From: Gloeophyllum trabeum ATCC 11539
Taxonomy: Eukaryota; Basidiomycota; Agaricomycetes; Gloeophyllales; Gloeophyllaceae
DNA length: 64,000 nucleotides
Direction of reading: 5' to 3'
NCBI RefSeq assembly: GCF_000344685.1
Contig: NW_006920411.1
Coordinates: 2,667,910 to 2,731,909 of the forward strand
Every line of letters begins with the position of its first letter. Position 1 is the first letter of the stretch. The notes under the pieces are model-generated. The model ran no database searches and was not told the origin of the DNA. It saw only the letters and a program-made list of their open reading frames with translations. A program made the position numbers and the translations under genes. Of the stretch, positions 61,576-63,080 are shown piece after piece.

Positions 61576-63080
61576 TCACACTGCCTCGTCCTTCACCTTA
61601 CTCTTCTTTTTCTTCTTCTTGGACTTGCCCGAGTCCTCCCCCGGCGCCTCCTCCATGACCTCCTTATGCTTCCGTTTCCGCTTCTCCTCGACGGTGGGCG
61701 CTGCCTCCTCCACGGGCGCCTTGAAGGCCTCGGCGCGCTCTGCTCTTCGCTGCTCGGTAACTTCTTCTTGCTATTTGCCAGCGGCGTGGTGAGGACTATT
61801 CGTAACAAGAGATGACATATGTGCGAACCTTTTGCTTCTTCTTCGCCTTCTCCCGCGCGTCCTTCTCGTGTGCCTTGAGGAAGTACTCACCCGTCTCCAG
61901 CTCGATATCGACCTTCCGCGGCTGCTGCGGCGGCGGGAATGGCGTGTACACCTTCTTCTTCTCCTTCCTCTTCTCCTTCTCCCGCTCCTTGATCTCCTCC
62001 TCGCCGAGCCCCGCCGCCTTGAGCGCCTCGCGCTTCGCCTCGGTCTGTGCGTGCTTGCGCGCGGTCTTCTCGCTCGTCTTGAGGTGGCGCTTGCGGAACT
62101 GCGGGAGGAACCTGTCCCATGACTCGGTCGCGAGCTTTGGGTCTTTGGCGAGCTCGCGCTTGATCATGAGCTCCTTGATGCGGTAGATGGGGTGGATGTT
62201 CTTCATGCAGTCGAGCACGATGCGCCGGACCTCTTTGAGCCCCTTGTAGGGGCCCATGACGCTCACTGTGCTCCCTTGCACCAGGACGTAACATTGTGTC
62301 AGTAGTTCAATCGCCTGTCCTTGGGATTAGCCATGTCCGCCATGCAGGAGACAGCATAACGCACCTTGAGCGTACTCCCGTCGGGCCCGATGATGCGCTG
62401 GCGCCGCTTGACGAAGCGCTCCTTGTTGCGCACGAGGCTGCCGATCTTGATGATGTCGCACGCGACGGTGTCCTCGAGAATGCGCGCGGCCTGCGCGACG
62501 TTCACGCCGCGCGCGAGCAGCTTGATCATGTCGCGCGCTTTGAGGATGATGTACGGGTCGTACGTCTTGCGCGTCGTGCGCACGGACATGGAGCCGTGCA
62601 CGAGGTCGAGCGTGCATGCGATGCCCTTCGGTTTGGTCAGCTGGTGAAGGGAGGGAGAGGAGGCAAGAGAGAGGCGAACGTACGTGCGGCTCGAGGGCCT
62701 TGGTGACGGCGCTCCAGACTTCGCGGAGGTACTTTTCACGGTACTTTGGGAAGAGGGTGGCGAATGAGGATTCTTCGGTGAAGGTCCCGCCCTTGTTATC
62801 CTCCGGCTGGAAGGGGTCGACTTTCCACTAGCTTGAGGTCTAAGACTGTTGAAGGCCCATATATCAAAGAGCTACTTACACTAACGAAAGCTTGATATAA
62901 GCCGCAATTCAAGAATGTCGACAGTTAATGCTCACTGGTCGATATCGTCCGTATCCCATGCTATAGCACACGGGTCAGCACGATCCAAAGACTCGGACAA
63001 GACTGCATACGCTTGTCCTTCCTATGTCTCTTGTTCTTGTTGACGACGACGTTCGCGCTGCTGCTTTCCGCCTCTGCCAT
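61576..63080 (-). CDS. krr1: KRR1, SSU-processome KH-domain protein
   Basis: Required for 40S assembly. Start [20 protein letters not shown] (exon 1, 63011-63080). Exon 2 (62936-62960) gives the family signature PWDTDDID. The next residues, [15 protein letters not shown], are in frame only if one base at 62880 is used as an exon between introns 62881-62935 and 62828-62879. Then come [107 protein letters not shown] and [19 protein letters not shown]. The KH-like region has lost the classic GXXG, as in Krr1. [15 protein letters not shown] and a Lys/Glu-rich C-terminus end at 61576. Every block matches the family in order. Confidence 0.95.

What the first reader, a model, noticed from the sequence alone, without database searches (positions are those of the whole stretch)
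62828..62935. One-nucleotide exon in KRR1
Seen: exon 1 plus exon 2 (63011-63080, 62936-62960) total 95 nt and end in the codon start CA. The next family block, [11 protein letters not shown], begins with TGG at 62825-62827 in phase 0. Exactly one coding base is therefore missing. The 108 bp between hold a complete intron (55 nt, GTGAGC...GTTAG, 62881-62935), a single T (complement of 62880) and a second complete intron (52 nt, GTAAGT...GCTAG, 62828-62879). Using the T gives PWDTDDIDHWKVDPF, the expected KRR1 N-terminus. Direct joining of the flanking exons shifts the frame, and the alternative AG upstream of the last acceptor gives an in-frame TAG. I checked the other AG...GT spacers in the 108 bp and none has a length of 1 mod 3. 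Known: single-base exons are extremely rare; one plant case (Arabidopsis APC11) is established. Inference: this is a real microexon, or a site of two-step re-splicing.
Basis: partly seen in the sequence, partly recalled or inferred. Interest (0 to 1): 0.88.

Follow-up and report, generated by a model that had tools for sequence, protein, structure and literature searches.

The report
One-base exon in fungal KRR1 gene
A gene needed to build ribosomes in a wood-rotting mushroom relative appears to contain an exon of a single DNA letter, and the way related mushroom genomes are mis-annotated at the same spot suggests that this extreme splicing arrangement is old and shared.

Summary
In the KRR1 gene (minus strand, 63080-61576; one locus found in the genome), exon 2 and the next conserved block are one base out of frame. 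The 108 bp between hold a 55-nt intron, one T (62880) and a 52-nt intron. No single GT/GC-AG or AT-AC intron restores the frame, and of two-intron combinations only the one-base exon keeps WKVDPF.
New evidence comes from 157 relatives. At this residue all 27 proteins known only from unnamed jgi/lgn contigs (15 of these contigs too short for introns, hence transcript-like) read DIDH-W. Of 130 genome-annotated proteins 35 do; 45 read Q-W, 42 have odd inserts or losses, 8 differ otherwise. 48 of 130 have an indel here, against 8, 1, 1 and 0 at the other junctions. That is what annotation programs would produce if they met a one-base exon throughout Agaricomycetes.
One-base exons are known in plant APC11 and VPS55 and Fusarium CYP621A: a new member of a known kind, apparently ancient and in a core gene. 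No RNA of this species and no genomic DNA of relatives could be read, so conservation is inferred.

The parts
61576..63080 (-). KRR1 (mis3) coding region, 7 exons, 393 aa, small-subunit processome KH protein
   Evidence: one locus found in the 35.5-Mb own genome
63011..63080 (-). exon 1 (70 nt)
62961..63010 (-). intron 1, 50 nt, GTATGC...TATAG, CTGAC 14 nt before the acceptor
62936..62960 (-). exon 2 (25 nt), encodes WDTDDID and ends in CA
62881..62935 (-). intron A, 55 nt, GTGAGC...GTTAG, candidate branch site CTTAT 17 nt before the acceptor
62880..62880 (-). exon 3: single nucleotide T, third base of His32 (CA|T)
   Evidence: H in 27 of 27 relatives from unnamed jgi/lgn contigs
62828..62879 (-). 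intron B, 52 nt, GTAAGT...GCTAG; only a distant yTnAy branch candidate (TTGAT, 36 nt before the acceptor)
62684..62827 (-). exon 4 (144 nt), begins TGG = Trp33 of [11 protein letters not shown]
62626..62683 (-). intron 4, 58 nt
   Evidence: the boundary giving EPH-GIAC agrees with solved KRR1 chains
62365..62625 (-). exon 5
62315..62364 (-). intron 5, 50 nt
61829..62314 (-). exon 6
61771..61828 (-). intron 6, 58 nt
61576..61770 (-). exon 7 with stop codon

Best explanation
The KRR1 pre-mRNA carries two ordinary short introns separated by a single-nucleotide exon (T, 62880). The spliceosome removes the two introns in two separate reactions, probably intron A first because it is transcribed first. 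Its product CCAT|GTAAGT then serves as the donor context of intron B, so both sites never have to be occupied at once. The T becomes the third base of His32 and restores the frame. Skipping the T, or keeping either intron, gives a premature stop. Shown: the anatomy, the frame, and that this is the only canonical solution found that keeps WKVDPF. Inferred: that it is spliced so in this species, the order of removal, and that the same one-base exon is ancestral to Agaricomycetes.
For: Exact boundaries and a single homology-preserving solution, with the introns side by side and not nested. Splicing without the T gives a stop after 112 residues; keeping A or B gives stops after 32 or 59. In 264 kb of the own genome, intron candidates cluster at 50-60 nt: 59 against 10 control hits at 45-69 nt, no excess at 100-114 nt (10 against 11), so 55 + 52 is normal and 108 is not. 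Of 157 relatives, H-W without indel in 27 of 27 proteins known only from jgi/lgn contigs and in 15 of 15 whose contigs are too short for introns like these, against 35 of 130 genome-annotated proteins (Fisher P about 2e-8 for the strict set, relatedness ignored). Indels within 6 residues of this junction in 48 of 130 genome-annotated proteins, against 8, 1, 1 and 0 of 130 at the other four junctions and 0 at six non-junction positions. Close pairs disagree: P0019 (lgn, H) is 98.2% identical to Suillus luteus P0023 (Q) and S. brevipes P0031 (HT insert); P0110 (jgi, H) is 91.5% identical to Botryobasidium P0111 (Q); two Agaricus bisporus varieties differ H/Q in N-termini that are otherwise identical up to FPKYRE. 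Of 28 odd models that begin with H, 12 continue with V, as expected for CA|T|GT; the own intron B read through gives HVS.
Against: No RNA from this species and no genomic DNA of relatives could be read. That jgi/lgn contigs are transcripts is inferred from their length, and 12 of the 27 are long enough to hold introns. Intron B lacks a good branch motif near its acceptor: TTGAT at 36 nt, whereas each of the five other introns has a candidate at 11-19 nt. The 35 genome-annotated H-W models may include species with a plain CAY before one intron; this was not testable. Auricularia reads R at the site (P0155), and many of the odd inserts, among them HIW, HFW, HTW and HLW, are not derived by my reading of the local DNA. 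If WKV may be lost, other canonical two-intron readings are in frame.
Confidence: 0.9

Rival explanations
1. Assembly error: the true genome has one more base at the junction, and a single 108-nt intron is removed.
For: A single missing base would also explain the frame; only one assembly was available.
Against: The base would have to be missing exactly between CA and TGG, since both exon frames are fixed by conserved residues. The 108-nt interior would contain a YAG-N-GTRAGT by chance in 0.025% of shuffles. 108 nt is outside the intron length peak. It cannot explain the same annotation trouble in many other genera.
Confidence: 0.04
2. A single non-canonical 107-nt intron (GT...TA or TG...AG) is removed, leaving CAG TGG, so that the residue is Gln.
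For: 45 of 130 genome-annotated relatives read Q-W here, including the nearest one, Heliocybe P0001. The same reading is reachable in this gene.
Against: Needs non-canonical ends although a canonical solution exists. 0 of 27 relatives from jgi/lgn contigs read Q. Near-identical proteins differ H/Q by source. Q is what a one-mismatch alignment of a ...CAT|TGG... transcript would give at this genomic sequence (inference).
Confidence: 0.03
3. Two canonical introns with other boundaries that drop WKV, for example DIDH-VIDPF.
For: In frame in this gene, and Trametopsis P0069 is annotated in just this way.
Against: WK is kept in the three best-matching solved KRR1 chains, and all 27 jgi/lgn relatives keep W directly after H. 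The alternative donors, such as GTAGCT, are weak.
Confidence: 0.02
4. A frameshifted, inactive allele or pseudogene.
For: Without the T the frame is broken.
Against: It is the only KRR1 locus found in the genome (the search scores best candidates only), the rest of the coding region is intact, and loss of KRR1 is lethal in yeast (recalled).
Confidence: 0.01

Closest known systems
Plant APC11 single-nucleotide exon (PMC4674806, part 1 of 3 read)
   Same: A one-base exon between two GT-AG introns, constitutive, needed for the reading frame of a conserved cell-cycle protein.
   Different: Plant, base A inside a stretch formerly annotated as a 422-nt intron, proved by cDNA and reporter constructs. 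Here a fungus, base T, two introns of 55 and 52 nt, no direct RNA proof.
Plant VPS55 1-nt microexon (PMC8831610, passages read)
   Same: Conserved one-base exon across land plants, missing from reference annotations, followed by a conserved GTRAGT donor.
   Different: Different gene and kingdom; alternative transcripts in some land plants; shown by RNA-seq and RT-PCR.
Fusarium CYP621A one-nucleotide exon (PMC12940212, parts 1 and 2 of 3 read)
   Same: Fungal nuclear one-base exon found through a phase mismatch inside a conserved motif, in an over-long intron (139 nt against a 56-nt median in F. graminearum).
   Different: Ascomycete genus, base G, a P450 of unknown function, supported by RNA reads. 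KRR1 is essential in yeast (recalled) and the arrangement seems to span Agaricomycetes.
Stwintrons (nested spliceosomal twin introns; titles and starts of abstracts seen in the search listing)
   Same: Two short introns removed by consecutive reactions at one site in fungi.
   Different: Here the introns lie side by side with an exonic base between them; neither interrupts a splice element of the other.

Membership tests
Single-nucleotide nuclear exon (APC11, VPS55, CYP621A kind) | one base flanked by an AG acceptor and a GT donor of two complete introns of normal size | tested here: met
   intron length peak; branch motif of intron B weak
Single-nucleotide nuclear exon (APC11, VPS55, CYP621A kind) | the base is required for the reading frame of the conserved protein, with no canonical alternative that keeps it | tested here: met
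Single-nucleotide nuclear exon (APC11, VPS55, CYP621A kind) | inclusion of the base in mature mRNA of this species | not testable with these tools
   no RNA reads available; relatives only: H in 27 of 27 proteins from jgi/lgn contigs
Single-nucleotide nuclear exon (APC11, VPS55, CYP621A kind) | AG-N-GT arrangement conserved in genomic DNA of orthologs | tested here: inconclusive
   no relatives' DNA found; protein-level traces only
Stwintron | an internal intron interrupts the donor, branch or acceptor element of an external intron | tested here: not met
   two-step enumeration gives only side-by-side introns as the homology-preserving solution
U12-type AT-AC intron | a single AT...AC intron restores the frame | tested here: not met
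   none found
KRR1 small-subunit processome protein | both KRR1 KH domains and full-length similarity to KRR1 | tested here: met
   PF17903 and PF21800; KRR1 chains of solved structures 5wlc, 5jpq, 7mq8

The most novel reading that the evidence does not exclude
The one-base exon of KRR1 is ancestral to Agaricomycetes, perhaps to Agaricomycetes plus Dacrymycetes, has been kept as a pyrimidine over that whole radiation in a gene for ribosome assembly, and is mis-modelled in most public mushroom genomes. It would be among the oldest single-nucleotide exons known and the first reported in Basidiomycota as far as my searches of an open-access library go. Since both skipping and retention make premature stops, it could also act as a splicing-fidelity switch on ribosome production.
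Probability: 0.72. Interest if true: 0.78.

Novelty: new member of a known kind. Interest (0 to 1): 0.66.

Why it matters
Single-nucleotide exons mark the lower limit of what the spliceosome can treat as an exon. My literature searches (open-access library only) brought up three nuclear genes with one: plant APC11 and VPS55 and Fusarium CYP621A. A case in a core ribosome-assembly gene of easily cultured fungi would allow direct tests of splicing order and exon definition. It also predicts a correctable error in the KRR1 models of many mushroom genomes, and suggests that disagreement between genome annotation and transcripts at one residue can reveal one-base exons by computation.

Tried and rejected
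Single-intron readings with GT/GC-AG or AT-AC ends: none in frame. Nested twin introns: no solution keeping the homologous block. A retrocopy of KRR1 as a natural cDNA record: none found; the own-genome protein search gave five matches, all exons of this gene (only best candidates are scored). Relatives' DNA in viral contigs and genome contigs: none confirmed. Metagenome contigs was not tried, its cap being 0. Literature: no paper in the library holds KRR1 and microexon together, and a search needing three of five terms found none; the two papers with KRR1, intron, basidiomycete and exon were seen only in the listing. In the passages that I saw, Phanerochaete P450 microexons (PMC1184071; shortest exon 6 bp) and Cryptococcus transcripts (PMC3990503) include no one-base exon. 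A first, looser intron-length scan was noisy (excess over its control only at 50-59 nt) and was replaced by a stricter one. A paper search for intron lengths in Gloeophyllum gave nothing that I used.

Limits of the relatives test: 157 distinct proteins from three lists of the best 120 out of 7060, 7103 and 6923 hits. All 157 were classified. The sequences are related and not independent, so the Fisher values overstate. All three queries carry H at the site, and the first query was my own spliced reading. The V background rate of 6.5% used for the HV test was assumed, not measured. The intron candidates are motif-and-frame matches, not proven introns.

Full report
What is there. The minus strand from 63080 to 61576 encodes KRR1 in seven exons. 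The 393-aa product matches both KRR1 KH-domain families in Pfam and KRR1 chains of solved structures. Two of these chains (5wlc and 5jpq; yeast and Chaetomium by recall, the output names no organism) align through DTDDID-x-WK without a gap; the third (7mq8, human by recall) keeps the WK. One locus was found in the 35.5-Mb own genome (the search scores only the best candidates). The best relative is Heliocybe sulcata at 88% identity, a member of Gloeophyllales, so the window most likely comes from that order.

The single base. Exons 1 and 2 (70 + 25 nt) end in CA after GAC. The next conserved block starts with TGG at 62827. The 108 bp between hold GTGAGC...GTTAG (55 nt), T, and GTAAGT...GCTAG (52 nt), exactly as reported. 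No single GT/GC-AG or AT-AC intron of 20 nt or more gives an open frame. Among two-step splices with GT/GC-AG introns of at least 35 nt, one outcome keeps the frame and the VDPFQPEDN block, and it uses the T, with the introns side by side. With introns down to 20 nt and loss of WKV allowed, other outcomes are in frame, but again only the T keeps WKVDPF.

Is it chance? Shuffling the interior of the 108 bp, a YAG-N-GTRAGT with both introns of at least 45 nt arises in 0.025% of 20,000 shuffles, and any AG-N-GT in 6.1%. The motif was chosen after seeing the sequence. In 264 kb of the own genome (window plus 20 stretches), intron candidates peak at 50-60 nt (59 against 10 control hits for 45-69 nt), with no excess at 100-114 nt (10 against 11). 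KRR1's other introns are 50, 58, 50 and 58 nt. Two introns of 55 and 52 nt are normal for this genome; one of 108 nt is not.

Relatives. Three protein searches gave 157 distinct KRR1 proteins, out of about 7,000 hits each. Of these, 27 come only from unnamed jgi/lgn contigs. 15 of the 27 lie on contigs too short to hold introns like those of this gene (fewer than 250 nt beyond the coding region, against 323 nt of introns here); the other 12 contigs are longer. All 27 read DIDH-W with no indel. Of the 130 genome-annotated proteins, 35 read H-W, 45 Q-W, 1 R-W, 42 have an insertion or loss directly after DID, and 7 lack the DTDDID block itself. Indels within six residues of this junction occur in 48 of 130, against 8 of 130 at the exon 1/2 junction, 1, 1 and 0 at the other three, and 0 at six non-junction positions. 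The trouble is therefore concentrated at this junction and seen only in proteins predicted from genomic DNA.

Close pairs suggest that these are annotation differences. P0019 (lgn, 1282-nt contig; H) is 98.2% identical to Suillus luteus (Q) and to S. brevipes (HT insert); P0110 (jgi, 1432-nt contig; H) is 91.5% identical to Botryobasidium botryosum (Q). Two varieties of Agaricus bisporus have identical N-termini up to FPKYRE except H against Q.

The kinds of error partly fit the same local DNA. In this window's gene, Q-W needs a non-canonical 107-nt intron, and dropping the codon needs a 110-nt one; Mycena maculata P0152 shows the dropped codon. Running past the T into intron B gives H-V-S here, and 12 of 28 odd models that begin with H continue with V. 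The reading H-VIDPF, available here, is how Trametopsis is annotated. By inference, QCW in Galerina and Marasmius, and QYW in Calocera, are what a donor shifted by 4 nt inside GTGCGT or GTACGT would give after CA, and HAS in Rhizoctonia would fit a GC donor after the T. Other inserts, such as HIW, HFW, HTW and HLW, I cannot derive.

Breadth. Odd or Q models occur in Gloeophyllales, Boletales, Agaricales, Polyporales, Russulales, Hymenochaetales, Thelephorales, Atheliales, Gomphales, Sebacinales and Cantharellales (taxonomy) and in one dacrymycete. Auricularia reads R (order), which I cannot explain. The inference is one origin before or early in Agaricomycetes. Direct DNA proof is missing, because no fungal relatives could be fetched, and some of the 35 H-W genome models may come from species with a plain CAY before one intron.

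Mechanism. Two ordinary introns are removed in turn. If A goes first, the donor of B becomes CCAT|GTAAGT, which lacks a G at -1 but has the full GTAAGT. Each of the three failures that I translated ends in a stop: after 112 residues without the T, 32 with intron A kept, 59 with intron B kept. A weak point is that intron B's only yTnAy branch candidate lies 36 nt before its acceptor, while each of the other five introns of the gene has one at 11-19 nt.

Known cases. Plant APC11 (PMC4674806, part 1 of 3), plant VPS55 (PMC8831610, passages) and Fusarium CYP621A (PMC12940212, parts 1 and 2 of 3), which its authors call the second example and the first for a fungal gene. PMC5436844, seen only in the listing, reports a single-base-pair exon in placozoan mitochondrial cox1, which is not spliceosomal (recalled). 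My searches found no report for KRR1 or any basidiomycete nuclear gene in that open-access library. It is a new member of a known kind, with unusual apparent age and a core host gene.

Noticed in passing
window 63637-63999 (+): The ORF running away from KRR1 on the other strand encodes a nuclear cap-binding subunit 3 domain (PF10309, 53.9 bits), so two RNA-related genes seem to sit head to head; the start of that gene was not determined.
   Followed up: partly
window 58484-59143 (+): JmjC hydroxylase domain (PF02373, 47.6 bits) in an ORF that follows a cysteine-containing ORF (57634-58581, no Pfam match); probably one JmjC gene with introns.
   Followed up: no
window 62626-62640 (-): Intron 4 has two acceptors 15 nt apart in the same frame (CAG|CTGACCAAACCGAAG|GGC); the distal one fits solved KRR1 chains, and CTGAC before it looks like the branch site.
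   Followed up: partly
proteins P0150, P0153, P0154 (Rhizoctonia, Ceratobasidium): Models read DIDH-A at the junction; this would fit a GC donor (T|GCAAGT) for the second intron in these fungi.
   Followed up: no
protein P0155 (Auricularia subglabra): The only one of 157 proteins reading R-W at the junction; it may mark a different gene structure or another modelling error.
   Followed up: no
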